This document shows, piece after piece, positions 6,679 to 20,813 of a stretch of DNA of 64,000 nucleotides. The stretch is taken from NCBI RefSeq assembly GCF_021172045.1, contig NZ_CP087164.1, positions 620,001 through 684,000 on the forward strand, in the 5' to 3' direction. The DNA is from Capillimicrobium parvum (GTDB lineage Bacteria; Actinomycetota; Thermoleophilia; Solirubrobacterales; Solirubrobacteraceae). The position numbers and the translations under genes were made by a program. Under the pieces are notes generated by a model that did not search any database, was not told the origin of the DNA, and saw only the letters and a program-made list of their open reading frames with translations. Each line of letters starts with the position of its first letter. The stretch's first letter is position 1.

Positions 6679-6754
<76 letters not shown>

Positions 6755-6818: not shown

Positions 6819-6842
6819 TGGCCCGATAGTGGCCCAAACGTC
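6819..6842. repeat. Left copy of a 24-bp repeat inside the element end
   Basis: A 24-bp sequence containing ATAGTGGCCCAAACGTC. It recurs with one mismatch, in the same orientation, at 16238-16261, close to the other end. It lies 65 bp inside the left core. A matched pair just inside both ends is what arm-type integrase sites look like. Confidence 0.6.
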
Positions 6843-6844
6843 GC

Positions 6845-7102
6845 TCAGGCGTCGCCCCTGCGCGCCGAGTCCTCGACCGCCTCGTACACCTCCGGGCCAA
6901 GGTCATCGCGCCGGATGACCTGCCATTCGCTGTTGGGGTTGTCGGCCCAGCTAGCGAGAGTCCGCATGGCGTAGTGCTCACCGACGCCCGCCTTCCGCGC
7001 CACCCACCACGCCGACTGAGCCATACCGTCTTCGAGCAGCGCGAGGTACAGCTTCGCGTCGTCAGTCTTCGGGTCGGCCAACCGGTCGTCATCGTCGGTC
7101 AT
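6845..7102 (-). CDS. Small acidic protein coupled to the integrase
   Basis: An 85-residue protein, ATG at 7102, whose start overlaps the integrase stop in an ATGA. The N-terminus is very acidic (MTDDDDRLADPKTDD). The middle, AWWVARKAGVGEHYAMRTLA, could fold as a short helix-turn-helix. It is the last gene before the attachment core. A role with the integrase (directionality or regulation) is possible, but no family is recognised. Confidence 0.65.
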   Translation of the reverse strand: MTDDDDRLADPKTDDAKLYLALLEDGMAQSAWWVARKAGVGEHYAMRTLASWADNPNSEWQVIRRDDLGPEVYEAVEDSARRGDA

Positions 7103-8181
7103 CGTGCCTCGTCTCGCGCGTCGCGCTCGGCGTCGAGCGCGTTCAGCCGCCCGGCGATTCCGGCCGTCGCGCCATCCAGCAGCGTGCCGTAGTGGCGCTC
7201 GACCATTTCGATGCTTGTACCCATGACGCGGGCCAACTCGAACGCGCTGACCCCGGCCGCGAGCGCGTCGGACGCGAACGTCGAGCGCAGGTCGTAGATG
7301 CGCGCCGGGCGCGGAACGCCCGCCGCGTCGATGGCCGGTGCCCACACGCGGCGGCGCCAGTTGTCGATGTTCAGCACGCCGCCCTGCGCGGCCGGGAACA
7401 CGAGCGGCGTGTCGAGGCGCGGCGGCACCGCGTCGAGCGCGGCGAGCGCCCGGTCCGACAGCGGCACCTGGCGGCGGCTGCGCTCCGTCTTGGCGAGGTC
7501 GACGACCTCGCCGCTGGGCACGGTGCGCCGCACCGTCAGGATGCCCGCCCGGCGGTCGATGTCGCGGCGTTCGAGCGCCTGCCACTCCTCGGGGCGCAGG
7601 CCGGTCGCGGCGGCGAACATGGGCAGCGGCGCGTAGGCGGGCGGCAGTTCGGCGGCGATGGCGTCGAGTTCGACGCGGGTGAACGCGCGCACCGTGCGCG
7701 GCGGCGGCTTCGGGTTGCGCCCGGCGAGCTTGGCCGGGTTGCGGGTCATGCGCTCCCAGCGGACGGCGGTGTCGAGCACCTGGCGCAACGCCTGCGCGAT
7801 GCCGTGCCCGGCCCGCGGCGGCAGGCTGTCCTGCCATCCGGCGACCTCGTGCGTCATGCGTTCGAGGTCGCGCAGCGGCACGTCACCGAACGCGCGCTCG
7901 GCGTGGTGCAGGCGGTCGCGCAGGGTGGCGACGGTCCGGGGGCGCACGGCGGCGGCGTGCCGGGTCAGGTAGACGTCGATGAACTCCGACAGGGTGACGT
8001 CGGCCACCGGGGCGGGCGCGCCGCGAAGCTGCGGCTCGATGACGTCGCGGAAGTAGGCGAGCGCCGCGCTCTTGGTCGGGAATGGCGACTTGCGGCGGCG
8101 GGCGCCGTCGGCGGCGTAGCACCGCAGGCCCCAGCGGTTCGGGCCGAGTCGGTACGCCTGGCCGCGTTGGGTGGCGGGCAT
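7099..8181 (-). CDS. int: Tyrosine-type site-specific integrase of the element
   Basis: A 360-residue phage-integrase-family recombinase starting at ATG 8181. An N-terminal arm-binding segment and a SAM-like core-binding domain (about residues 55-150) precede the catalytic domain. Visible active-site residues are the first Arg in TGLRPEEW, a Lys in KTERSRRQVPL, the YDLRSTFAS box (the usual His of HxxR is Tyr here, as in many actinobacterial integrases) and the nucleophile Tyr in ERHYGTLL. The stop lies about 345 bp from the att core in tRNA-Arg, so this enzyme very probably recombined the element there. It is co-translated with its neighbours through 1-bp and 4-bp overlaps. Confidence 0.92.
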   Translation of the reverse strand: MPATQRGQAYRLGPNRWGLRCYAADGARRRKSPFPTKSAALAYFRDVIEPQLRGAPAPVADVTLSEFIDVYLTRHAAAVRPRTVATLRDRLHHAERAFGDVPLRDLERMTHEVAGWQDSLPPRAGHGIAQALRQVLDTAVRWERMTRNPAKLAGRNPKPPPRTVRAFTRVELDAIAAELPPAYAPLPMFAAATGLRPEEWQALERRDIDRRAGILTVRRTVPSGEVVDLAKTERSRRQVPLSDRALAALDAVPPRLDTPLVFPAAQGGVLNIDNWRRRVWAPAIDAAGVPRPARIYDLRSTFASDALAAGVSAFELARVMGTSIEMVERHYGTLLDGATAGIAGRLNALDAERDARDEAR

Positions 8182-8411
8182 CAGGCAGCGTCCTTCCGGT
8201 TGCGGCGGCGGTGCAGCGCGACGCGGCAGCGCGTCGAGCACGTCCGCCGGTTGGCGTAGCCCGCGAGCGCCACGCCGCAGACCACGCACGCGCGGGCCGC
8301 GCCGGTCGGGGTCCGCTCGCCACGGCAGGCGGGGCAGAGCCCGGTCGCGTCATCGAGGTCACCGACGTGATGCTCGGTCCGGCACTGGGGGCATGGATAG
8401 GCGGTCCTCAT
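8181..8411 (-). CDS. Small double zinc-finger protein
   Basis: A 76-residue protein with CPQC, CPAC, CVVC and CSTRC pairs, enough for two zinc ribbons, and a basic C-terminus (ALHRRRNRKDAA). The start is taken at ATG 8411 because the upstream extension lacks a ribosome-binding site and runs through the TGTAACAC repeat region. Its stop overlaps the integrase start by one base (TGATG). The C-terminal finger resembles those often preceding integrases in actinobacterial elements. Nucleic-acid binding is likely but unproven. Confidence 0.7.
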   Translation of the reverse strand: MRTAYPCPQCRTEHHVGDLDDATGLCPACRGERTPTGAARACVVCGVALAGYANRRTCSTRCRVALHRRRNRKDAA

Positions 8412-8466
8412 GTAACACTTTCGGGCAGTGAGGAGGAACGGTTGCGGAGCCCTCTTCTGTAACACC
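8411..8466 (-). promoter_or_regulatory. Two TGTAACAC repeats at the start of the integrase operon
   Basis: TGTAACAC occurs on the plus strand at 8411-8418 and 8459-8466, 48 bp apart. Read on the minus strand, the inner copy runs into the ATG of the zinc-finger gene. The spacing, near a whole number of helical turns, and the overlap with the start codon suggest operator sites controlling the zinc-finger/integrase operon. Confidence 0.4.
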
Positions 8467-8485: not shown

Positions 8486-9572
8486 TAGGATTCGGCTCGT
8501 TTCAGGGGGTCCGCCCATCCGGGCGAACTGCGGCCGTCGCCCGAGCGGCTAGCTGTCGAGCCCGGTGACCTGCCGAACGCGGTCGAGTGGGGGTCGGTTG
8601 CCGAGGGCGCTGTGGGTGCGCCGCTCGTTGTAGTGGCGCACCCAGTGTGGCAGCGAAGCTCGACGGGCCTCGCTTGAGGCGTATTCGAGCGCGTAGGCCC
8701 ACTCACGCTGCAGCGTCTGCTGGTAGCGCTCCACTTTGCCGTTGGTGCGCGGCGTGTAGGGCCGCGTGCGGAGGTGATTCATCGCCCTGGCGTGCAGCAG
8801 TGCCTTGAGCGTCTTGTTGTGGACGTAGGCGAACGCGTTGTCGGTCATCAGTCGCTCGGCGACGATGCCGTGCTCGAGGAAGAAGTCCAGCGCGCGACGG
8901 GTAAACGCGGTGACCGTGGCGGCCTTCTCGTCGTCGTGGATCTCGCTGTAGGCCAGGCGGCTGCAATCGTCGACGATCGAGTGGCAGTACTCCCAACCGA
9001 CCCGCCGTGAGCGCCTGGTGCGGTCGCCGGTGACGGCGTGGCCGGGCTCGGTGAACTTGCCGAAGCGCTTGACGTCCATGTGCAGCAGGTTGCCGGGGCA
9101 CGGCCACTCATAGCGGACGACCGCCGGCCGCTCAGGGGCGGGGCGCCGGGACACGCCGGCGCGTTGCAGGACTCGGTGGACGGTCGAGTGCGACCGCGCG
9201 ATCTCGGGCTCGTCGGCGAGCCTCCGTGGGCTCCATCCGGTCCGCTTGCGCAGCTCGCAGATCCGCTGGGCCTCCTCGGCTGGCACCTGTCGCGGTGAGC
9301 GGTGCGGGCGGCTGGAGCGCTCGGTCAGACACGCCAGCGATGTTTGCTCGTCCGGCGTGGCTTGGCGCCAGCGATGCACCCACTCCCACACGGTCGACTT
9401 CGAGACGTTCGCCCAGGCGGCCGCCTGGGCGAACGTCTCGCCGTCGTCAACAACACGACGAACGACAACCTCGCGTCCACGCGCGGTGAACCGGGCTCTA
9501 TGGTGCGCCATCCGGGCCTCCTTGAGACGTGTGAGCTTCGACACCCACACCCTCTCGGCAGGCCCGGACCTA
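8486..9572 (-). mobile_element. IS481-family insertion sequence
   Basis: It contains a single intact DDE transposase gene. The proposed ends begin TAGG on the left (8486) and, read inward from the right, TAGGTCCGGGCC (9572). The two ends share only a scattered match (TAGG, GGC, GGG), so the inverted repeats and exact borders are tentative. The right end coincides with the stop codon of the excisionase-like gene. No clear target duplication is seen. Confidence 0.55.
8549..9511 (-). CDS. IS481-family transposase
   Basis: A 320-residue transposase from ATG 9511. An N-terminal helix-turn-helix (TFAQAAAWANVSKSTVWEWV) precedes an integrase core of the RNase H fold. The catalytic DDE triad is visible as Asp in LHMDVKRFG, Asp in LMTDNAFAY and Glu in NGKVERYQQ, with the downstream HYNERRTHSALGNRPP motif typical of the family. 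It appears intact and so possibly active. It sits inside the satellite-like element, between the excisionase-like and zinc-finger genes. Confidence 0.9.
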   Translation of the reverse strand: MAHHRARFTARGREVVVRRVVDDGETFAQAAAWANVSKSTVWEWVHRWRQATPDEQTSLACLTERSSRPHRSPRQVPAEEAQRICELRKRTGWSPRRLADEPEIARSHSTVHRVLQRAGVSRRPAPERPAVVRYEWPCPGNLLHMDVKRFGKFTEPGHAVTGDRTRRSRRVGWEYCHSIVDDCSRLAYSEIHDDEKAATVTAFTRRALDFFLEHGIVAERLMTDNAFAYVHNKTLKALLHARAMNHLRTRPYTPRTNGKVERYQQTLQREWAYALEYASSEARRASLPHWVRHYNERRTHSALGNRPPLDRVRQVTGLDS

Positions 9573-9764
9573 CTTCACGGCGTTCGGAACGTCCCTGGGC
9601 ACGTCAGCTAGCCACTCGTCGACCGCGTCCTCGCGGAAGCGCAGCGCGCCGCCCGGCAGCCGGAAGGCCGGAAGCTCGCCCCGCCGCGTCCAGCGCAGCA
9701 CCGTCTCGGCGCTGACGCCGAGCAGACCGGCGAGTTCGCGGGCGGTGAGCAGCGCGTCCATCAC
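9570..9764 (-). CDS. xis: MerR/HTH_17-type excisionase-like protein
   Basis: A 64-residue protein consisting of one winged helix: LTARELAGLLGVSAETVLRW, then RRGELPAFRLPGGALRF. This is the standard DNA-binding module of excisionases and small MerR-like regulators in actinobacterial elements. It starts in an ATGA overlap with the upstream ORF. Its TAG stop coincides with the IS481 border, so the insertion probably fell at or just after its end and separated it from the integrase operon. It is expected to bend att DNA and favour excision, or to regulate the integrase. Confidence 0.8.
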   Translation of the reverse strand: MMDALLTARELAGLLGVSAETVLRWTRRGELPAFRLPGGALRFREDAVDEWLADVPRDVPNAVK

Positions 9765-10096
9765 ACGCCCCGCTTCGCCCGTGCGGCGGCGGACTCCACG
9801 ATGTTCCCGACCAGGACGTTGGGCAGCGGTGGACGCAGGCGCTCGTAGTTCAGGTCGGCGGCCGCGGACGCAACGTCACCGGGCGCCATCCCCCAGCCGA
9901 GGAGCGTTGTCGCGTACCCCGTGAGCCGGTCGATGCAGTCGCGGGTCGTCGTGCTCGCGGCCACGAGCGCGTCGGGCGCGGGTGTGCACGTCACCGTCTC
10001 GGCGCGCTGCTCCGCGCACGGCAGGTCGGGTGCCCGACCGGCGTCCGGCGCCGACCACACGACGCGAAGATGCCGCGCCCCGGGCTGGCGGCTCAT
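9761..10096 (-). CDS. Hypothetical protein upstream of the excisionase
   Basis: A 111-residue protein starting at ATG 10096 with a 4-bp overlap into the excisionase-like gene. The N-terminal half is Ala/Pro/Thr-rich and the C-terminal half looks helical (RDCIDRLTGYATTLLGWGM...). No family is recognised. Its promoter must lie in the iteron/palindrome region 10097-10202. Confidence 0.55.
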   Translation of the reverse strand: MSRQPGARHLRVVWSAPDAGRAPDLPCAEQRAETVTCTPAPDALVAASTTTRDCIDRLTGYATTLLGWGMAPGDVASAAADLNYERLRPPLPNVLVGNIVESAAARAKRGV

Positions 10097-10112
10097 GCCA
10101 TCCGGCCGCTTC

Positions 10113-10200
10113 GCAGGTAACGGCAGGTAACGGACCTAAACGTGTGCGCGCGTGCGCGTACGCGCGTTGGAGGGACGTACCGGCCGTTACCCGTTACCTG
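10113..10200. promoter_or_regulatory. Iteron and palindrome region, candidate replication origin or operator
   Basis: The octamer GGTAACGG occurs twice head-to-tail at 10116-10123 and 10126-10133 (as a tandem 10-bp repeat). It occurs twice in the opposite orientation at 10184-10191 and 10191-10198. Between them lies a perfect 12-bp palindrome GCGCGTACGCGC at 10154-10165. A fifth GGTAACGG occurs at 15865-15872. The region separates the primase-polymerase gene from the excisionase-side genes. Iterons beside a primase suggest an origin; operator sites for the downstream promoter are the alternative. Confidence 0.5.
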
Positions 10201-10202
10201 GC

Positions 10203-11680
10203 TCACCGGTCCTCCCAGGCGACCGGGATGACGAAAAACGCCCACTGCAGCGTCTGGCGCCCACCCGGCTGGGTGGCCTTGACCCGGCCCTCGCGCCCCG
10301 GCTTCGTCCAGCCGAGCGGCGGCATCGCGCGCACGACCGCGTCGGCGATCCCCGGCCCGGTCTTCTCCGCGACGAACTCGCCGAACCACTCCGCGCGGAC
10401 GTAGCGCAGACCCGTGGCCGGGTCTTCGAGCGCATGGCGCGGCGGTCCGCCCGGGGCGTCGACGCGGGCCAGCTGCGCGAACGCCCGCCACCGCGACGCC
10501 TGGTCCTTCATGTCGACCGCTTCGACGGGCGTGCCGCGCAGGTAGCCGACCCCGTGGTCGTGGGGTCCTCGACCTCGACCCCGGCGACATGCTCGCCGAG
10601 CAGGTACAGCAGCGCATTGACCCGGGTCACGTCGACCGGCTTGAACTCGGGTTCGGCGCCCGCCTGCAGCGCGACCTCCTGCGCGAGCTTCGCCGGGGTC
10701 CCGACCCGGCCGAGCGGGTCGAGCACGATGCGGTCCCCGTCGTCCAAGTGGATGTGCGCGACGGCGTTCGTGCCGCGGCCGCAGATCTTCACGCGGTCGA
10801 CGCGTTTGCCGACCCCGTCGAGCGCGAGCTTCGCGGTCAGTTCCTCGACCGCTGCGCCGATGTTCTCGGCGGGCTGGTAGCGCGCGACGCTGTGCGCGAT
10901 CTTGCGGACCCCGGCCTCGTCGAGCGGCGCCTGGCAGCGGTCGCGGTTCATCACGAGCAGGGCCGCCAAGATGGCTGCTTCGTGGAAGCCGCGGCGGCGC
11001 ATCGTCCCCGCGAGGCTGGTCAGCGCCGAGTTCCGGCTACGGAGCGGGATGGCGGCCTCGACCGGCGCGGCGGTGCCGCTACCGGTCCGCTTCGGGCGCA
11101 GCGCCTCAGGGACCGGCTGCAGCGCGGCCGTCCACGGGCGCGCGCCGTTCGCCCACTCGTAGATCACGCCGCTGGCGTGGCGGCTGCCAGGCAGCATCAC
11201 GTACGTGCCAGCACCCCTGACCTCGACCCCGGTCACGGGGGTGGTGTCCTAGGTGACGGTTCGCGCGCCGGGCGAGCAGTAGACGTGTGCGCCGCGCGTC
11301 CCCGCGAGCGGCCCGTCGGTCGCCTCGCCCGTCCACACCACCGGGCCGGTCAGCCCCAGGGCGCCGATGACCTCGCCCGAGTCGCGTCCGTGCTTGGCGT
11401 CGATGTCGACGACCGACACGATGTTGCCGACGGCGGCCGCCCAGTTGGCGCCCGGAAAGCTGGCGTCCCAGTGCAGGAGCGCCCGCTCGTCGGTCGTCGC
11501 GTTCGTCAGACCGTTGGGGGTGCGCGGATGCTTGCCGGGGGAGTTGCAGTCCGCCTTGCCGCAGGTGCAGCGCCCGTCGGCGGCGACCGTGTGGCAGGGG
11601 AGAACCTTGAGCCCGTGTTCGGCGAAGTCCCGCGCGGCCTCGAATGCCGCCGTGTGGCTATTGTCTGTAGCGCGAGACAT
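10203..11680 (-). pseudogene. Bifunctional DNA primase/polymerase, interrupted twice
   Basis: From ATG 11680 the protein matches the prim-pol N-terminal domain: HGLKVLPCHTVAADGRCTC, then GKHPRTPNGLTNATTD, and the metal-binding VVDIDAKHG. An in-frame TAG at 11249-11251 stops it; the same frame continues past the stop with VTGVEVRGAGTYVMLPGS, which is the rest of the domain. A frameshift then occurs near nt 10560, where the homologous continuation (GYLRGTPVEAVDMKDQ) moves to another frame, ending at 10203. Repaired, it would be ~490 residues. It would prime or initiate replication of the element. It is either decayed or affected by sequence errors. Confidence 0.75.
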
Positions 11681-11741: not shown

Positions 11742-11936
11742 TCACGCCGTCGTGGCGAGCCGGGGCTCGTCGCCGCTGGCGTCGTGGGCGTGCAGGTAGA
11801 AGCGGAACGCGCGGCACGCCTCCCTGCTGATGCTGCGGTCGTGGGCCGCTGCCAGGGCGTGGAAAGCTTCGGCCTCGGCGACCGGAAGCCACGCCGAGAC
11901 ACACTTCGTCGGTTCCTGCTGCTTCTCGTTCTTCAC
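11742..11936 (-). CDS. Small ribbon-helix-helix-like protein
   Basis: A 64-residue protein from GTG 11936, chosen because a GGAGGTGG ribosome-binding site lies just upstream. The pattern KCVSAWLPVAEAEAF, then LAAAHDRSISREACRAFRFY, fits a beta strand followed by two helices, as in CopG/Arc-type repressors. It lies directly upstream of the primase-polymerase gene and may be its regulator. The assignment is by fold pattern only. Confidence 0.5.
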   Translation of the reverse strand: MKNEKQQEPTKCVSAWLPVAEAEAFHALAAAHDRSISREACRAFRFYLHAHDASGDEPRLATTA

Positions 11937-12155
11937 CTTCGACCACCTCCGGGTCTGCCGCGTTTGTCTCCGCGGTGAATCGTTGCGGCGGGACGGGCGG
12001 ATAGTGGGTACTTTGACGCCCGACCGCGGCCCGTTCACCGGGTGGAAGAACGCTACGTTTCGCCGTGCGGGGGCCGTGTGGCCTAGTGCTTCACGAGTTC
12101 GTCAGGCACTACGTCCGCTTTGCTTGACATTTTCGTGCAAGTAGCCGTTCGTCGC

Positions 12156-12201
12156 TGCCAACGTTGGCACGCGCGCGGCAATGCTTCTATTAGAAGCTTC
12201 T
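12156..12201. repeat. Palindrome cluster between the capsid and replication modules
   Basis: TGCCAACGTTGGCA, a perfect 14-bp palindrome, lies at 12156-12169. GCTTCTA/TAGAAGC arms with a 1-nt centre follow at 12183-12197, and AGAAGCTTCT at 12192-12201. A partial copy, TGCCAACATTGG, lies at 15887-15898 near the right end of the element. The region is just past the stop of the minus-strand gene at 12210 and upstream of the regulator at 11936, so terminator and operator roles are both possible. Confidence 0.5.
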
Positions 12202-12209
12202 CCGCGGGA

Positions 12210-12515
12210 CTACGCCCGGTACGTCCACGGCCGTCCGTCCGTCGCCAGCCACGCCTCGACCGCCCGCCGACCGAGCCGCTCCGCCCACGCGCCGAGCCCG
12301 TAGCGGTCGGCGAGCACGATGGCGTCTTCGAGCGCGTGCGGGTCGCGCAGGTCGATGCGTTCGGGCGCCTCGCGCAACTCGGCGTACGCGCGGATGAGGT
12401 CGGGCCCGTCCGTCGCCCGCTGCCCCGCCCGCCGCAAGCACCGGATGGCGTGCCGCTGTGCCGCCGGCAGCCGCTCATCGACCACCTCGACCTCGCCGCT
12501 ACTCCGTGCCCGCAT
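12210..12515 (-). CDS. Small helical protein downstream of the capsid gene
   Basis: A 101-residue, mostly helical, charged protein: GPDLIRAYAELREAPERIDL, then LEDAIVLADRYGLGAWAERL. ATG 12515 is chosen because the upstream extension of the frame is low-quality. It lies about 140 bp past the stop of the capsid gene on the same strand, so it may be transcribed with it. No family is recognised. Confidence 0.5.
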   Translation of the reverse strand: MRARSSGEVEVVDERLPAAQRHAIRCLRRAGQRATDGPDLIRAYAELREAPERIDLRDPHALEDAIVLADRYGLGAWAERLGRRAVEAWLATDGRPWTYRA

Positions 12516-12655
12516 ACGCCCTCCGGCGCGCCCGCAGGTCGTCGCGCTGCGCCCACCGGGTGACCGCCGCATGCCGTGCCCTCTGGCTCGCGACGACACG
12601 CCCAGCCCGTTGTTCGTCGCGACGAGTGACACGGCGCCGCTTCGAACAAGATGGT

Positions 12656-14032
12656 TCACTTCACTTCCAAGTATCTCAGACCGGCGGGGTTGACCACCGA
12701 GCAGCCCGACCGCCAATACATGTAAAACCCGCGCTGTCCGGTCGGTCGTCCCGAGGCGCCGAACAGGTGGGCAATTACCTCCAAAGTTGCCCCAATCCGG
12801 TCGCCGATAACGACACTCTGTCGGAAATCTCCGGCGATGGCGACCTTCTTGCCGGAGGTCAACACGTCGTCCATCTCGGACCACAAGGCGAGCGGCCGTC
12901 CGACGTAGGTCTGGCGGTCGGCGGAGATGACGGGCGGCTCGGCGCTGCCGGGCCCGAGCATCCGGTAGCTGGCGTCGGCGACGGCTGGGCTAATCATCAC
13001 CGCCGAGTTTGCCTGAAAGCGCGGCGGGATGTCACTCATGAGGCTGTAGCAATCGGCAACCCCATATGCGGCTGTTCCTGCGCTCAACACCTTCTGACCG
13101 TTGCCGAGGCCGACGAGGACGCCTTCCGGTTCCGCCGAGGCGTGCCCGCGCCCGGTGAGGAACATCGAGCTTTCCAGCCGGTCCTTGGCGTCTTGCAGCA
13201 TCAGTGCCATCTCGGTGGCAAGCGTCGACCAATCCTGTGACACTTCGATGGAGGGGGGCACGAACGCCTGTGCCTTTTCAGCGTAAAGGGTGGGCTGGAC
13301 GAGCGTCGGTGTGTCATCGCAAACCTCGGCCGCTTCGCCGTCATACGACGCGCTCACTCCTGACGAGGTGACTCCTTTCCACTCGTTGCCGACCATCGTG
13401 ACGAGCCTCGCGGCGCGGCGTAGTGGGTTCAACGTGCCGTCCGATGACAACATCACCGACGGGTCAAGCGCCGCGGGAATCGCGAACCCGCCCTGGTTGC
13501 CGGAGCCACCGAAGACCGACAGTGCGCGGGTGTACTGGATGCGGTTCACCCGCTCGAGCGCGGCGTGTTCCTCGCGCGACATCCGCAGGTGCGCGGACCC
13601 GGGGTCACACAGGATTCGCCCGAACGCCCGGTGGTAGTGCTCGTCAGCCGTCGCGACCAGATACTCGCTGTCGAGGTCGGTCGGGTCGGAGCGCAGGTGC
13701 GCGTCGAGCCGGTCTGCGGCCTCCGGGATCAGGTGTCCGCTGTTGCTGTATCGCTCAACGGTACGCAGCGCGGCGCTCCGTGTCGGGTTGCCGCGCGCGG
13801 GGGCGGGGCCGCCACGCGTAGGGAACTCGGCGCCCGCTTCGAGGTTCGCCGGGTTCCGCGCGGCGCGCTTGGCGACCTGGCGGCGGTGCTCCTGCTCGGA
13901 CATGAACCGGTCGGCGTACCGGCACACCGCCTCATGCTCGCCATCGATGATTTCACCTTGGCGGATGTGGATGGTTTCACTGCCGGAGAGTTGGGAGGTG
14001 AAGCTTCGGGCTGCGATTCGGACAGCGGCCAT
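12656..14032 (-). CDS. HK97-fold phage major capsid protein
   Basis: A 458-residue protein from ATG 14032. The first ~200 residues are helical and charged (scaffold-like delta region). The mature shell domain follows, recognisable by FGGSGNQGGFAIPAALDP, an ELFVPPS-like AFVPPSIEVSQDW strand, DAKDRLESSMFLTGRGH and the C-terminal GQRGFYMYWRSGC and LRYLEVK strands. It would assemble an icosahedral capsid. No portal, protease, terminase or tail gene accompanies it in the element, so particles would need a helper phage. It ends cleanly at a TGA/TAA-type stop with no lesions, unlike the primase. Confidence 0.88.
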   Translation of the reverse strand: MAAVRIAARSFTSQLSGSETIHIRQGEIIDGEHEAVCRYADRFMSEQEHRRQVAKRAARNPANLEAGAEFPTRGGPAPARGNPTRSAALRTVERYSNSGHLIPEAADRLDAHLRSDPTDLDSEYLVATADEHYHRAFGRILCDPGSAHLRMSREEHAALERVNRIQYTRALSVFGGSGNQGGFAIPAALDPSVMLSSDGTLNPLRRAARLVTMVGNEWKGVTSSGVSASYDGEAAEVCDDTPTLVQPTLYAEKAQAFVPPSIEVSQDWSTLATEMALMLQDAKDRLESSMFLTGRGHASAEPEGVLVGLGNGQKVLSAGTAAYGVADCYSLMSDIPPRFQANSAVMISPAVADASYRMLGPGSAEPPVISADRQTYVGRPLALWSEMDDVLTSGKKVAIAGDFRQSVVIGDRIGATLEVIAHLFGASGRPTGQRGFYMYWRSGCSVVNPAGLRYLEVK

Positions 14033-14398
14033 GAGGGCACCTCGCGGGGCTCGCGGTGGGCACGTCCGCCTGCGCGGCGGCGGGCAGCGTGCGATATGTC
14101 GGTGCCTTGCGTCTGGCTGGGGCGCGGCCACCCCGTGGCTATTACTCGCTACAGCCCTACCGCGGCGGCGGCGTCCCCACAGCCATCCGGCCCGAAGGAA
14201 CACGACCTCGCTGCGCCGCCTCCCGGGTGAGCGTGCGCTCGGCGCGGAAACCGGTGGCGGCCCGGGTGGGAAGCCCGGCGCGGACCGCCACCAAAGAGTC
14301 TACGGGTTGCGGCGGACGCCGCGCGTGTGGTGCAGTGGCCCGGTCGTGGCTCGGCAGGGCGGCAGGGCGCGGCCGGGCAAGGCTCGGCGCAGACGGCG
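14033..14398. other. Intergenic region upstream of the capsid gene
   Basis: About 365 bp without a convincing gene; ORFs here overlap in several frames and none has a family pattern. It should contain the capsid promoter on the minus strand; no clear -35/-10 pair is seen. A GAGG element lies shortly upstream of the capsid ATG. Confidence 0.4.
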
Positions 14399-14423
14399 AA
14401 GGCCCAGCGAATCGCTGGGCCTT
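14399..14423. terminator. Strong bidirectional hairpin terminator
   Basis: AAGGCCCAGCG at 14399-14409 pairs perfectly with CGCTGGGCCTT at 14413-14423 across a 3-nt loop. The 11-bp stem with A and T ends can work in both directions. It lies 43 bp past the stop of the DUF892 gene and so ends that minus-strand transcript before the capsid module. Confidence 0.75.
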
Positions 14424-14466
14424 CGGCTGCGGCGTTCCGGACGGACCGTCGGGGTGATGGTGCCGG

Positions 14467-15486
14467 TCAGGCGTTGACGCGTTCACGCTCGGCGGCGTTG
14501 AGGACCCCAGCGCGGTTCTTGTGCGCGCGCTCGTAGGAGCGGACCTCGTTGGCGCGGTCGTCGTCGCCCTCGGACAGCACGGCCTGCACCTCGGCGGCGG
14601 TGAGCTCGTCATAGCCCGCCCACGGCTCGTCGCCGCGCAGCGAGGTGATGCGGCCCAGGACGGTGGTGCGGTTCTGGTTCTTGCGCTCGTAGGCGTCGAC
14701 CTTGGCCAGGTCGATCTGCGAGAGGTCGGCCAGCTTGCTGATGATCTCGTCCGCGGTCAACGCGTCGTAGTGCGCGATCGCTAGATCGTCCGCGGAAGCC
14801 ATGGCGCCCTTGACCTGCCCTTCGGCCTGGGCGACGCCGGGGACCTTGCGGGCCTGACGCGCGGTGCGCTTCGTGTTGGCCGTCGTCTTGCGCGCCGTGG
14901 TCTTGGTCGCCTTGGCCGCGTCACGAACGGTGTCGGCGGCGCCCGTCTTCGTGACGTCGTAGGAAGACTCGCCGTCGACGTCGGCGTGGACGACGGCGTC
15001 GGTCAGCTTCGGGATCTCCCGCAGGACCCGCGCCAGCATCTTCTCCTCGTCGGCGAGAATCGACGCGGCCAGCCGGGCGGTCTCGCCGTCACCGACCGAG
15101 CGGGCCAGCCGCTCGATCGCGGTGTACGTCGCGATCTCCAGGGCTTCGTTCGCGCAGGCGTCCTTGGCGTTCTTCAGGACCTTCTCCTCGCCGCCGGTGC
15201 CGCGCAGAAGATCAAACGGCATCTTGCCCAGTGCCAGGAACTGTCCGACGACGCTCTCGGCCGCGCCGAACATCGCCATCAGCGGGTTGGAGCCCCCGAG
15301 CTGCTGAGCCCGGCGACCGACGCGCTCGGCATGGTCACGCGTCTCGTCGAGGTGCGTCTCGAGGGCGGTGCGGTAGGACCCGCGGGGGGTCATGGCGATC
15401 TGCGACTGCAGCACCCGGATCAGGGCCTGCTCGCTGGCGTGCGCCTCGTCGAGGTATTGCACGACCTTCTGCTGGTCTGCGTTCAT
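14467..15486 (-). CDS. DUF892 ferritin-like protein with two C-terminal repeats (element cargo)
   Basis: A 339-residue protein from ATG 15486. Residues ~1-165 are a DUF892/YciE-type four-helix ferritin-like domain (QKVVQYLDEAHASEQALIRV, then ANEALEIATYTAIERLA, then ADEEKMLARVLREIPKL). A basic Lys/Thr/Ala linker (TKTTARKTTANTKRTARQ) follows. Two copies of a ~45-residue module then occur, HYDALTADEIISKL...YERKNQNRTTVLGRI and GYDELTAAEVQAVL...YERAHKNRAGVLNAA. It is probably a stress or metal/oxygen-related cytoplasmic protein. It lies between the att cores, so it counts as cargo of the element. Confidence 0.8.
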   Translation of the reverse strand: MNADQQKVVQYLDEAHASEQALIRVLQSQIAMTPRGSYRTALETHLDETRDHAERVGRRAQQLGGSNPLMAMFGAAESVVGQFLALGKMPFDLLRGTGGEEKVLKNAKDACANEALEIATYTAIERLARSVGDGETARLAASILADEEKMLARVLREIPKLTDAVVHADVDGESSYDVTKTGAADTVRDAAKATKTTARKTTANTKRTARQARKVPGVAQAEGQVKGAMASADDLAIAHYDALTADEIISKLADLSQIDLAKVDAYERKNQNRTTVLGRITSLRGDEPWAGYDELTAAEVQAVLSEGDDDRANEVRSYERAHKNRAGVLNAAERERVNA

Positions 15487-16237: not shown

Positions 16238-16261
16238 TGGCCCAATAGTGGCCCAAACGTC
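16238..16261. repeat. Right copy of the 24-bp repeat inside the element end
   Basis: It matches 6819-6842 with one mismatch (A for G at the seventh base), same orientation. It lies 118 bp inside the right core. With the left copy it is a candidate arm-type binding site for the integrase. Confidence 0.6.
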
Positions 16262-16378: not shown

Positions 16379-16418
<40 letters not shown>

Positions 16419-16689: not shown

Positions 16690-18858
16690 ATGGCCGATAG
16701 CGCTCCGCTCCGCCCGAGCAAAGAACACATCGAGGCGTTCCGCGAGGCAGCACAGTCGCTGAAGCTTTATCGGCGGGCGGACATCCCCGACGCCAAGGGT
16801 GAGTCGCTGATCGAGGAGCTCTACGTCGACCCGCTCCCGAATGACCACGTCCTGAACACGATGGTCAAGCCCAACACGACCTTCATCATCGGGCGCAAGG
16901 GCACGGGCAAGTCGACGGTCTTTCTTCGCGCCCAACACGAGCTTCGCCAAAGCTCCGATGTGGTCTCGGCCTACATCGACATCAAGACGGTGTACGAGTC
17001 ATCCCAGGTCGACCCTCAGCTGCTCGCGAAGGCAGCGGCCATCGAGGGCAGTCTCTCGCCCTCGGAGATCGGGCAGCTGCTCCTGTACCGTCACTTTCTC
17101 TCGACGCTCGTCCGTGACATCCGGAAGGAGATCGAGAAGCGCATCAAGACGTCCATCTGGACCAAGGTCAAGCGCAAGGTCGGCGGTTCTTTGTCGGATC
17201 TCTTCGCCGAGATGGATCACCTGCTCGCGCGGGCACACGACGACCACTTCATGAGCGTCCTCGGAACATTTCAGAAGCAGGCCAGGGATCGCAATCATGA
17301 AGAGGAAGCGGGTCGTGACGGCGCGGCAGGCGAAGTGAAACTGGGCACGGATCCGAGCGTCAAGCTCTCCCTCGAATCCAGCGTGACGTTCACGACGACA
17401 TCCGAGCGAGAGCGCGAGTACGCCGAAGTCCTGATGCGGATCTTCGACATTCGTCAATACATCACCGAGCTACGAGCGCTGCTTGAAAAGGTCGAGATCA
17501 AGCATCTGTATGTCTTCGTAGACGATTTCTCCGAACTGCCGCCGGAGGCGATGCAGATCGTCGTGGACTCGATCCTGAGTCCGCTGAACAACTGGTCTGA
17601 CGAGTTGGTCAAGTTCAAGGTCGCGGCGTATCCAGGACGCGTGTACTACGGCCAGATCGACAAGACGAAGATCGATGAAGTCAACCTTGACCTCTACAGC
17701 CTCTACGGCACCGCGGATCTCGCGAGCATGGAGGACAAGGCCATCGACTTCACCCGGCGACTCATCGAGCGCCGCTTGAGGTACTTCGGCGACACGCGAG
17801 CGCGGCGCTTCTTCAGCCAGGAGTACTCCAAGTCTCAGGAGGAGATCTGGCGCCAACTGTTCTACGCGACAATGGCCAACCCACGCAACTTGGGCTACGT
17901 CCTCTACTTCATCTACGAGGCCGAGTTGCTGTACGGCGGTCGCATCACCCTCCGCAGCATCGGGGATGCAGCCCGTCGCTACTACGAAGAGAAGATTGAG
18001 GCGTACTTCAACATGAAGCGCTTTCTGCATGAGACGTTCGAGGAACGCTCGTCAATCTTCAGCCTAAAGGACCTGCTCGATGAGTGCGTTGAGCGCGCTC
18101 GGGCGCTTCGTTCTCACCAAAGGTCATCCGTCATACGGGACCTCGAAGGTCGACCGCCTACGAGTCACTTCCATGTTGTGACCGCGCTAGACAGCCTGCT
18201 TGCAACGTTGGAACTGAACTTCTTCCTCACCAAGTACTTCGTCATGAAGGACCGCGACGGTCGCCAGGTCACCGTCTTCGCTCTCAACTACGGGCTGTGC
18301 CAGAAGGAGACGATCATCTTCGGGCGCCCCGGCGGCAAGAGGGAGCACAGGCTGTACTTCGTTGAGCGCATCTTCGACTACACGCCCATCCTTCAGGCCT
18401 ACTTACGCACGAATCAAGAGATCGCGTGCGACAACTGCAACGCAACTTTCGAGCCAGAGCAACTGCCTGCCCTGCAGCTGTTCGGAATGCAGTGCCCGAA
18501 CTGCAAGGCGGGCGCATGCTCGGTCACGAACCTCTCGCGCAAGTACGAAGCCACGCTCCGTGAGGTCAGCGACACGGCGCTGCTGCCCCAGGTCGAGTTG
18601 GGGATCCTGCACACGCTCGGAACGGAGGCGGATCCGCAGTTCGCCGTCGAGATTGCTGGAGAGTTGGACTGCTCCTATCAGTTGATCGGGAAGCGTGCTC
18701 GGGCGCTTGCCGAGCGGGATTTGGTGCATCGAGACACGAACGAGGGCGGCCGTCGCGTCTTTACGATCACCGATCGCGCTCGCTCGATCTACATGGACGA
18801 GATGGTTGTCGAAGAACCGTCCACCCCGTCGCCGGACCGAGGCCGGGACGTTGAGTAG
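16690..18858 (+). CDS. Large P-loop ATPase with zinc ribbon and C-terminal winged helix
   Basis: A 722-residue protein. Walker A is GRKGTGKST (about residues 68-76), preceded by a beta strand TTFII. A Walker B-like LYVFVDDFSEL lies near 272-282. A long helical region is followed by a four-Cys zinc ribbon (CDNC near 580 and CPNC near 602). A winged-helix-like tail comes last (about 630-710; CSYQLIGKRARALAERDLV, then RRVFTITDRARSIY). The gene is visibly less GC-rich than its neighbours and uses a rare TTA leucine codon at 18403, signs of transfer. It is alone, just outside the right attachment site. The architecture (regulatory ATPase plus DNA-binding tail) resembles orphan defence or DNA-transaction ATPases; the family is not recognised. 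Confidence 0.8.
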   Translation: MADSAPLRPSKEHIEAFREAAQSLKLYRRADIPDAKGESLIEELYVDPLPNDHVLNTMVKPNTTFIIGRKGTGKSTVFLRAQHELRQSSDVVSAYIDIKTVYESSQVDPQLLAKAAAIEGSLSPSEIGQLLLYRHFLSTLVRDIRKEIEKRIKTSIWTKVKRKVGGSLSDLFAEMDHLLARAHDDHFMSVLGTFQKQARDRNHEEEAGRDGAAGEVKLGTDPSVKLSLESSVTFTTTSEREREYAEVLMRIFDIRQYITELRALLEKVEIKHLYVFVDDFSELPPEAMQIVVDSILSPLNNWSDELVKFKVAAYPGRVYYGQIDKTKIDEVNLDLYSLYGTADLASMEDKAIDFTRRLIERRLRYFGDTRARRFFSQEYSKSQEEIWRQLFYATMANPRNLGYVLYFIYEAELLYGGRITLRSIGDAARRYYEEKIEAYFNMKRFLHETFEERSSIFSLKDLLDECVERARALRSHQRSSVIRDLEGRPPTSHFHVVTALDSLLATLELNFFLTKYFVMKDRDGRQVTVFALNYGLCQKETIIFGRPGGKREHRLYFVERIFDYTPILQAYLRTNQEIACDNCNATFEPEQLPALQLFGMQCPNCKAGACSVTNLSRKYEATLREVSDTALLPQVELGILHTLGTEADPQFAVEIAGELDCSYQLIGKRARALAERDLVHRDTNEGGRRVFTITDRARSIYMDEMVVEEPSTPSPDRGRDVE

Positions 18859-18892
18859 CAGTCGAGAGCCCGGCCGCGTTGGCCTGATCGTT

Positions 18893-19060
18893 CTATCCCG
18901 TGCTCGTAGGACGAAGCTCGGTGACGTTCGTCCGTGCCGTCTCCTCGAGCATCGCGGCGAGGCCGTCCGCCAACGCGGCGTCGAACGAGGGGAGCAGGGT
19001 GGCCGTAGATGTTCACGGTCGTCCTCATGTCCTCGTGCCGCAGGCGGAGCTTGACCTGCA
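18893..19060 (-). pseudogene. C-terminal remnant of a tyrosine integrase
   Basis: On the minus strand KLRLRHEDMRTTVNIYGH matches the last conserved box of phage integrases, including the catalytic Tyr before GH. A one-base frameshift right after it moves the continuation (LLPSFDAALADGLAAMLEE, typical of the family's tail) to the next frame, which ends at a TAG at 18893-18895. The rest of the gene is missing. Confidence 0.6.
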
Positions 19061-19182
19061 CGGATCAGCTCGCGCGGCGATTACCACGCCGCGCAGGGCG
19101 GGGCCTCCGCGAGTCGAATACCTCGCTGCGGATGCTGCACGTCAAGCTTCGAGATCGCTGCGCAGCTGAACCAGATGACCCG

Positions 19183-19482
19183 ATGCGGCGCGACTGGTAC
19201 GGATACGACCCGACATGCAGCCCGGAAGGACTCTTCGCTCGGAACCGGGGACGCTGGCGGCTCGGTGCCCGGGGGGGCGAGCAAACGCATGCCGTCTTCT
19301 CGTACATCGGAGATCACACGATCAAGCTCGTGGCCGAGATCACCGGTATTGGGCAGGTGGGCAATCAGCGAGCGCTTGTCGGCCGCGTTTTCCCGCTAGG
19401 TCACCCGCTGTCGCGGCGATTCGTCGGGGCGCCGTCACCAGACCACCATCGGAATCCTGTCACCTACTTCGCCGCTGGCTAA
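19183..19482 (+). CDS. Hypothetical protein, possibly a remnant
   Basis: A 99-residue ORF from ATG 19183. The segment HAVFSYIGDHTIKLVAEITG, then GRVFPLGHPLSRRFVG and HHRNPVTYF, has a clearly protein-like pattern. The N-terminal part is less convincing and may be truncated. It overlaps the 3' end of the opposite-strand integrase by 4 bp. No family is assigned. Confidence 0.4.
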   Translation: MRRDWYGYDPTCSPEGLFARNRGRWRLGARGGEQTHAVFSYIGDHTIKLVAEITGIGQVGNQRALVGRVFPLGHPLSRRFVGAPSPDHHRNPVTYFAAG

Positions 19483-20813
19483 CGACGAGCCGCGTCACGC
19501 GTGATCGCGACGACGTTCTCGGGCTCATCGAAGATCGAGGCGCCCACGGCGTCGGCGATCGCCTCGTCCACCGAGCGGATCCGCTTCCCGTATAGGTCTA
19601 CGGTCGTGGCGATGTTCTCGAGGCCGAGGCGCTCCTTCACCATCTGCATCGAGCCTCTGGGCGTGGCCATGGCCAGCGTGGCCGCGGTGTGCCGGAGGTC
19701 GTGGAACCGCAGCCCGTGGAGCCGAATAGGCAGCGCCGCGCGTACGGCGGGCTTGAAGGCGCGGCGATAGAACGGGTTGTGCCGCACTGGGTAGCCGCGC
19801 GGCGTCACGAACAGCAGGCGGCCGGGATCGTTCGCGTCGGCGGTCCAGCCGAGGTCGGCGCGGTCGGCGTTCGCCGGGTCCTCGCGGGCAACGGCGTACC
19901 CCCGGGCGACCGGACGCCGGGACTCTCGATCGCCTGCTCGATGAGCGGTGGGAGCCCCCGCCGGCAGCGACAGACGCCGCCGAGACGCGGCGGACTTGGG
20001 GTGCCCCACGAGCAGCCCCTTGGCCGAGCCGTCCAAGTGGCTGGACTCGATCGGCTTCAACGCGAACTGGACCGTCAACTCGCGGTGTATGAAGTCGATG
20101 TCGCGGCGGCGGAGCGCCCAGATTTCCCCGGCGCGGAGCCCGCATGACCCGTCGAGCAGGACCGGTAGGCGCCAGTGCTCGGGCAGGGCGTCGGCGAGGG
20201 CGCGTAGCCCGGGACCTTCGAGGTACAGCTTCGAGCGCCGGACCCCGGCGCGCTTCTTGGACGGCATCTCCACGGCGTCGCACGGATTGACGGCGACGTA
20301 GCCGCGCTGCGCGGCGAGCCTCATGACGGCGTTGACGACGCCGAAGATCCGTCGCACCGTGTTCGGCTCTCGCACAGAGGCGACCTCGCGTACAAACTCC
20401 TATACCGCGGCGGTCGTCACGCCGGCCACCCTCGCGGACCGAAACCGGCACGGCCGGTCGGGGTGGACGGGGTCGGCCTCGCCGACGAGCCACCGGCTAA
20501 GAATCGCCTTATACCCCGCCCGCGTCTTCGGCTCCAACTCCTTCGCGTCCCACACGCCGCGAAGTTCGTCGGCGACGGTGGCGAACAGCTGCTCGCCCTT
20601 TCGGGCCGGGGCATAGGCACCGCGGAGAACGTCCGAGTCGCGGCGTGCGATCCAGCGCTCAGCCTCGCGCTTGGTCTTGAAGTTCTGCTCCTCGCGAGCG
20701 CGGCCGCTCGGATCGTCGGCCGGGCGCCAGCGCGCCTGCCAGATGGTCGAGCCGTCCGCGCGCTTCTTGACGCGCCCATCCTTGTCCTTCCGAGCCCTCA
20801 CATGCCATCGCAT
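19479..20813 (-). pseudogene. Second tyrosine integrase, interrupted by an amber codon and frameshifts
   Basis: From ATG 20813, with an AAGGAGG site upstream, it opens as a phage integrase with an AP2-like arm-binding start (DGSTIWQARWRP). A TAG at 20400-20402 stops the frame, yet the same frame continues as a normal core-binding and catalytic domain. Within the catalytic part, nt 19890-19980 shows two compensating frameshifts at G-runs (the expected LPPLIEQAIESPGV lies in another frame). Active-site boxes remain: SCGLRAGEIWAL, FHDLRHTAATLAM and TTVDLYGKRI. Its own attachment site is not visible. Confidence 0.75.

What the first reader, a model, noticed from the sequence alone, without database searches (positions are those of the whole stretch)
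12656..14032. Lone intact HK97 capsid gene while the replication gene is broken
The capsid frame is clean over 458 codons, but the element's prim-pol has two lesions. Retaining an intact capsid without any other virion gene suggests selection for capsid remodelling or interference with an infecting phage, or a very recent decay.
Basis: partly seen in the sequence, partly recalled or inferred. Interest (0 to 1): 0.7.

Follow-up and report, generated by a model that had tools for sequence, protein, structure and literature searches.

The report
Satellite-like island with lone capsid gene
This is a 9.7-kb integrated island in a soil actinobacterium that carries one intact phage capsid gene and no other recognisable virion gene; relatives show this is a long-kept design of phage-satellite-like islands (the kind known as phiRv1/phiRv2 in mycobacteria), not a decayed phage, although this copy's replication gene has recently broken.

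Summary
The capsid gene is real: minus strand, 14032 to 12656, 458 codons, no stop, HK97 family. It lies in a 9,664-bp island in tRNA-Arg, bounded by a perfect 40-bp repeat. The island holds a tyrosine integrase, an HTH/Xis-like gene, a Prim-Pol gene, a recent IS481 copy and a DUF892 cargo gene, and no portal, protease or terminase. The Prim-Pol damage is confirmed: one in-frame TAG by homology, one probable frameshift by coding signal.
The lone capsid is not the leftover of a dying prophage. Its four-member clade (Solirubrobacteraceae, 100/100 support) comes only from genomes with no detectable portal or related terminase. A second such clade exists in other Actinomycetota. Portal-bearing homologues lie elsewhere in the tree. 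Four complete lone-capsid islands measure 8.6 to 9.7 kb; one, in the same genome, carries the defence gene PD-T7-4. So the lone capsid is an old, retained trait, while the Prim-Pol lesions and IS look recent and local.
The best reading is a phage satellite, architecturally like phiRv1/phiRv2-type candidate PICIs, whose capsid protein builds or redirects helper capsids (precedent: Ccm of SaPIbov5). That role is inferred. dN/dS is saturated and no helper is known. New member of a known kind.

The parts
6715..6754 (+). attL: 40-bp perfect direct repeat at the 3' end of tRNA-Arg(ACG) 6679-6753
   Evidence: identical copy at 16379-16418; 0 expected by chance
6819..6842 (+). 24-nt repeat TGGCCCRATAGTGGCCCAAACGTC just inside the left end, a likely integrase arm site
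   Evidence: two copies only, one at each end; 0 expected by chance. Function inferred
7099..8289 (-). tyrosine integrase, intact
   Evidence: PF00589 3.1e-7; phrog_1 3.3e-49
8181..8465 (-). small cysteine-rich (treble-clef-like) ORF
   Evidence: PF09889 2.2e-4, below the family cut-off
8549..9611 (-). IS481-family insertion (transposase 8549-9550), CTAG at both ends; changes the last ~13 codons of the HTH gene
   Evidence: three further copies with 0-1 differences over 901 bp elsewhere in the genome
9570..9764 (-). HTH_17 / excisionase-like gene, HTH domain intact, 3' end altered by the IS
   Evidence: PF12728 3.5e-16; phrog_66 excisionase 3.6e-13
10203..10511 (-). ORF in the shifted frame, probable C-terminal part of the replication gene
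   Evidence: coding-frame signal switches upstream of its ATG; no family match
10508..11680 (-). Prim-Pol / PriCT_1 replication gene, broken: in-frame TAG at 11249-11251 and probable frameshift at ~10560-10570
   Evidence: PF09250 3.3e-13 and PF08708 6e-15 on the two pieces
12656..14032 (-). HK97-fold major capsid protein, 458 aa, intact; the finding itself
14388..14434 (.). 23-nt-arm inverted repeat between the DUF892 gene and the capsid gene, possible transcriptional boundary
   Evidence: pair I4, 83% complementary; not called a terminator
14467..15486 (-). DUF892 / ferritin-like gene, probable cargo
   Evidence: PF05974 1.1e-12; about 70-80% identical DNA in many chromosomes of the order
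16238..16261 (+). second copy of the 24-nt terminal repeat
16379..16418 (+). attR: second copy of the 40-bp repeat; island length 9,664 bp

Best explanation
The feature is the single virion gene of a phage satellite-like integrated island, not the remnant of a full prophage. Intact relatives would excise with their own integrase and Xis, replicate with their own primase, and use a helper phage for portal, terminase, tail and (here) prohead protease. The island's capsid protein would either build small shells around the helper portal or co-assemble with the helper's capsid protein and shrink the head, so that a roughly 9-kb genome is favoured and helper yield drops. Shown: island boundaries, gene content, absence of portal, protease and related terminase in the genome, the clade of lone capsids, conservation and fold of the capsid, and confinement of the Prim-Pol lesion to this copy. 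Inferred: helper dependence, packaging, capsid role. This particular copy is probably impaired or grounded, because Prim-Pol is broken.
For: Boundaries: perfect 40-bp att repeat in tRNA-Arg, 24-nt repeats at both ends, intact tyrosine integrase and HTH/Xis gene. Same plan in relatives: att-bounded lone-capsid islands of 9,529 bp (this genome, tRNA-Cys, L010), 9,639 bp (Solirubrobacteraceae MAG, tRNA-Gly, L012/L047) and 8,608 bp (L156, tRNA-Lys), each with integrase, replication gene and one capsid. Their replication genes are open (336, 600 and 238 aa). No portal in the genomes of the window, S. soli, S. taibaiensis and the MAG, and no related terminase; the four portal-bearing genomes in the same test all give a terminase hit. 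Tree: the four lone capsids are one clade at 100/100, and a second lone clade is 100/100; two changes of label against a shuffled mean of 7.5, 0 of 500 shuffles as low. The window capsid keeps 42 of 45 near-invariant residues; neutral drift of 10% nt would leave the frame open with P=0.017. The fold model resembles the capsid of cf-PICI EcCI2 (Z 23.1) and phage Mycofy1 (Z 24.1, 34% identity). L010 carries PD-T7-4 (E=2.2e-75), as satellites can carry defence genes (PMC9122126). Precedent for a lone capsid homologue acting on a helper: Ccm of SaPIbov5 (PMC8569155).
Against: No helper phage, excision, particle or expression evidence exists. The window capsid has the longest branch of its clade (1.21 against 0.83-0.98) and an odd amino-acid make-up, which fits some relaxation. 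dN/dS is saturated: 0.44-0.68 for window pairs, 0.62-0.70 for the three phage-phage pairs tested, so it does not discriminate. There is no protease to remove the N-terminal domain, whereas L012 has one. Portal absence is a profile search; very divergent portals would be missed.
Confidence: 0.62

Rival explanations
1. Defective prophage: a complete phage lost all virion genes but the capsid, which is intact only because the loss is very recent.
For: Prim-Pol has two lesions and a near-identical IS has inserted. Up to about 5% neutral nt change would leave the capsid frame open with P=0.13.
Against: The lone state is shared by the whole clade across Solirubrobacteraceae at 36-43% identity. The 9.6-kb size and the gene plan recur in independent islands. 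No portal or terminase remnant was found in island or genome.
Confidence: 0.1
2. The capsid has been taken over by the host or island for a task other than packaging, such as an encapsulin-like compartment or a decoy that poisons infecting phages.
For: No portal or terminase anywhere in the host genome. The HK97 fold is shared with encapsulins at Z 17.5-18.8. The neighbour DUF892 gene is ferritin-like. One relative, S. soli, has a TIR/CAP12 effector gene beside its capsid.
Against: Sequence and structure are nearer to phage capsids than to encapsulins (34% identity, Z 24.1 to Mycofy1). A long helical N-terminal domain is kept. The DUF892 gene is a common chromosomal gene of the order and was not recognised beside the other lone capsids examined.
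Confidence: 0.13
3. An actinomycete integrative-conjugative element (AICE) that picked up a capsid gene.
For: Int, Xis and Prim-Pol are also AICE modules (PMC3218068). The S. soli and S. taibaiensis loci have an FtsK/SpoIIIE gene within a few kb of the capsid.
Against: No FtsK/SpoIIIE (Tra) match among the window-island ORFs tested, nor among the ORFs tested in L010, L012 and L156.
Confidence: 0.07
4. The Prim-Pol lesions are assembly errors and the island is fully functional (compatible with the satellite reading; concerns only this copy).
For: The second lesion sits beside a C4 run. Prim-Pol motifs around the TAG are intact.
Against: Two separate lesions of different type; IS copies differ by at most 1 in 901 bp, so the consensus is not grossly noisy.
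Confidence: 0.2

Closest known systems
phiRv1 / phiRv2 and related candidate PICIs of Mycobacterium (PMC10654092, PMC3986857)
   Same: Integrated islands of 9.3 and 10.8 kb, integrase plus major capsid gene, tRNA targets for tyrosine-integrase members. phiBN42_1 of M. canettii lists integrase, excisionase, primase, prohead protease and capsid, the plan of L012.
   Different: Different host class, no prohead protease in the window island, IS481 insertion and broken Prim-Pol. Sequence kinship of the islands was not tested.
SaPIbov5 and its Ccm protein (PMC8569155)
   Same: A satellite with an HK97-fold capsid homologue and no protease of its own; the best mechanistic precedent for a lone capsid that redirects helper heads.
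   Different: Ccm is 355 aa with 24% identity to its helper's capsid protein. Ccm was not compared directly here; no helper or size change is known for the window island.
capsid-forming PICIs, e.g. EcCI2 (PDB 9gyi)
   Same: HK97-fold capsid encoded by a satellite; structural match Z 23.1.
   Different: cf-PICIs encode connectors and both terminase subunits as well (described in PMC10690885); the window island has only the capsid.
AICEs (PMC3218068)
   Same: Int, Xis and Prim-Pol modules in Actinobacteria.
   Different: No FtsK/SpoIIIE transfer gene found in the island; that paper's AICE definition includes no capsid gene.
Full prophages of the same family, L015/L016 (G072, G070)
   Same: Homologous capsid, 40% over residues 167-457.
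   Different: They have terminase, portal, a capsid fused to its protease, and tail-like genes.

Membership tests
Mycobacterial candidate PICI (phiRv1/phiRv2 type) | integration machinery and major capsid gene in one bounded region (definition of PMC10654092) | tested here: met
Mycobacterial candidate PICI (phiRv1/phiRv2 type) | sequence kinship of the island with phiRv1/phiRv2 | not tested
   no phiRv sequence was fetched
Phage satellite (functional sense) | lacks its own portal, terminase and tail genes | tested here: met
Phage satellite (functional sense) | induced and packaged by a helper phage | not testable with these tools
   needs phage and host
Phage satellite (functional sense) | working replication module | tested here: not met
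   Prim-Pol broken in this copy; replication genes open in L010, L012 and L156. So this copy is filed as a satellite-type island, not as a working satellite
cf-PICI | own connectors, small and large terminase besides the capsid | tested here: not met
   only a capsid found
SaPI Ccm (capsid-size redirector) | HK97-fold capsid homologue in a satellite-type island, without own protease | tested here: met
SaPI Ccm (capsid-size redirector) | incorporated into helper capsids and shrinks them | not testable with these tools
   needs experiment
AICE | FtsK/SpoIIIE-type Tra protein | tested here: not met
   none among the island ORFs scanned
Defective prophage | closest relatives are full prophages | tested here: not met
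   lone clade 100/100
Encapsulin | closest relatives are encapsulin shells | tested here: not met
   nearest sequence and structure matches are phage capsids

The most novel reading that the evidence does not exclude
Actinomycetota carry at least two old, separate lineages of satellites of about 9 kb whose only virion gene (with or without its protease) is a major capsid protein, kept intact across families while portal and terminase are absent. They would be a widespread Ccm-like or self-capsid strategy that arose more than once, with the unrelated capsid of L010 as a possible third case.
Probability: 0.45. Interest if true: 0.6.

Novelty: new member of a known kind. Interest (0 to 1): 0.4.

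Why it matters
What the lone capsid does in phiRv-type islands is open. The tree and the recurring island size give a testable case that the capsid is kept because it works on a helper, and they name a cultured host with a relative (Solirubrobacter soli DSM 22325). They also extend this island type, known to me mainly from mycobacteria, to Solirubrobacteraceae, where one genome holds two such islands, a third capsid fragment and no portal.

Tried and rejected
dN/dS by NG86 on codon alignments: saturated at 36-43% identity, not informative. Close homologues for a proper dN/dS: none at over 43% identity in 232 genomes of the order, 396 drawn from the phylum, the genome-contig scans or the viral-contig scan, apart from short or local segments at 48%. 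PF03354 and PF20441 as terminase markers: they also miss terminases in portal-bearing genomes, so their absence alone says little; replaced by a terminase of this phage group. Promoter and terminator scan: no promoter-like site, terminators at chance level. A prohead protease between capsid and Prim-Pol, where L012 has one: no family match for the ORFs there. ORFs 12083-12884, 9761-10096 and 11742-12038 gave no clear family. My first Prim-Pol alignment used the wrong frame and was discarded (redone); the frame-wise G+C table is not affected.

Full report
WHAT IS THERE. The capsid gene is on the minus strand, ATG at 14032, stop at 12656, 458 codons, with GAGGTG before the start. It belongs to PF05065 (7.4e-22) and PHROG 10 (2.4e-18). 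It sits in a 9,664-bp island whose ends are a perfect 40-bp repeat, 6715-6754 at the end of tRNA-Arg and 16379-16418. A 24-nt repeat lies just inside each end. From left to right: tyrosine integrase, a small cysteine-rich ORF, IS481, an HTH/Xis-like gene, unknown ORFs, Prim-Pol, unknown ORFs, capsid, and a DUF892 ferritin-like gene. All the genes listed are on the minus strand.

THE BROKEN GENE. Prim-Pol reads from 11680. A TAG at 11249-11251 interrupts it; homologues L166-L169 align through the stop in the same frame, and the DID and SRH motifs on either side are kept. Near 10,565 the codon-position signal moves to another frame beside a C4 run. Homology does not reach that point, so this second lesion is probable, not proven. 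IS481 (8549-9611) has three other copies with 0-1 differences over 901 bp in the genome, so it arrived recently; it replaces only the last ~13 codons of the HTH gene.

NO OTHER VIRION GENE. The genome (5.95 Mb, one contig) has three capsid loci, no portal, no prohead protease, no PF03354 or PF20441 terminase and no hit to the terminase of the related prophage in L015. The last test is the meaningful one: it finds terminases in all four portal-bearing genomes tested and in none of the eight others.

RELATIVES. In 232 genomes of the order, five others have a homologue. Three, identified through, are S. soli DSM 22325, S. taibaiensis and a Solirubrobacteraceae MAG; their whole genomes have no portal. 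The other two are full prophages with portal and terminase. Of 36 viral contigs with homologues, 32 have a portal (31 over the family cut-off); the rest may be fragments. A tree of 92 capsids puts window, MAG, S. soli and S. taibaiensis in one clade at 100/100, and L135, L136, L138, L139 (other Actinomycetota genomes without detected portal) in another at 100/100. The lone label needs two changes; shuffled labels need 7.5 on average, and 0 of 500 were as low. L135 and L138 lie near contig ends, so their status rests on genome-wide absence.

RECURRING SIZE AND PLAN. Complete att-bounded lone-capsid islands: window 9,664 bp (about 8.6 kb without the IS); L010 in the same genome 9,529 bp at tRNA-Cys; L012 9,639 bp at tRNA-Gly; L156 8,608 bp at tRNA-Lys. 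L012 has capsid, prohead protease, Toprim/AAA primase, HTH and integrase. L010 has integrase, HTH, a replication-initiator-like gene, a different capsid lineage (not found by tblastn with the window capsid) and PD-T7-4 (2.2e-75). L156 has an integrase-like gene, HTH_36 replication-like gene, HNH and capsid.

IS THE CAPSID UNDER SELECTION? The window capsid keeps 42 of 45 near-invariant residues, within the range of phage capsids. Its frame would survive 5% neutral change with P=0.13 and 10% with P=0.017, so it cannot have drifted for long. dN/dS is saturated and does not help. The branch is the longest of its clade and the composition is odd, so recent relaxation in this copy is possible.

STRUCTURE. 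The model has a helical N-terminal part (17-59, 83-174) and an HK97 fold from about residue 186. Best solved matches: the GTA capsid (Z 24.7), phage Mycofy1 (Z 24.1, 34% identity), cf-PICI EcCI2 (Z 23.1), HK97 (Z 19.4) and encapsulins (Z up to 18.8). By sequence, Mycofy1 is the only PDB hit of the single protein (5.3e-52).

MECHANISM. The parts fit a satellite that supplies its own capsid protein and borrows the rest. Two versions cannot be separated here: the capsid makes the whole small shell on the helper's portal, or it co-assembles with the helper's protein as Ccm does (PMC8569155: pentamers of Ccm, smaller heads, helper titres 10^6-10^7 times higher with a ccm mutant). The missing protease favours reliance on a helper or host protease; the same open point is noted for Ccm in that paper.

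KNOWN OR NEW. PMC10654092 defined candidate PICIs as integrase plus capsid and counts phiRv1 and phiRv2 among them; PMC3986857 gives 9.3 and 10.8 kb for these and lists the integrase, excisionase, primase, protease, capsid plan for phiBN42_1. The window island is a new member of that architectural kind in another class. Kinship by sequence with phiRv islands was not tested.

Noticed in passing
L010:2137-11709 (own genome, contig positions about 2,540,137-2,549,709): A second lone-capsid island in the same genome, 9,529 bp at tRNA-Cys with a 44-bp repeat, carrying the defence gene PD-T7-4 (2.2e-75) and an unrelated capsid lineage.
   Followed up: partly
L011 near 9811-10332 (own genome, capsid match 4,952,000-4,952,596): Third capsid locus, a 276-aa open frame matching only profile positions 72-278; probably a remnant.
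   Followed up: no
L013:9674-12779 (Solirubrobacter soli): Lone capsid beside a TIR/CAP12-like effector gene, with an FtsK/SpoIIIE gene and a serine recombinase nearby.
   Followed up: partly
window 9395-9446: 26-nt arms with no spacer form a near-perfect palindrome inside the IS481 transposase gene; the same stretch matches itself in reverse in all four copies.
   Followed up: no
window 14467-15486: DUF892/ferritin-like gene inside the att-bounded island, about 70-80% identical to genes spread over the order; captured host gene or useful cargo.
   Followed up: partly
window 16690-20813: Just outside attR: a 722-aa ORC-CDC6-like ATPase and a second tyrosine-integrase-like ORF, perhaps another island next door.
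   Followed up: no
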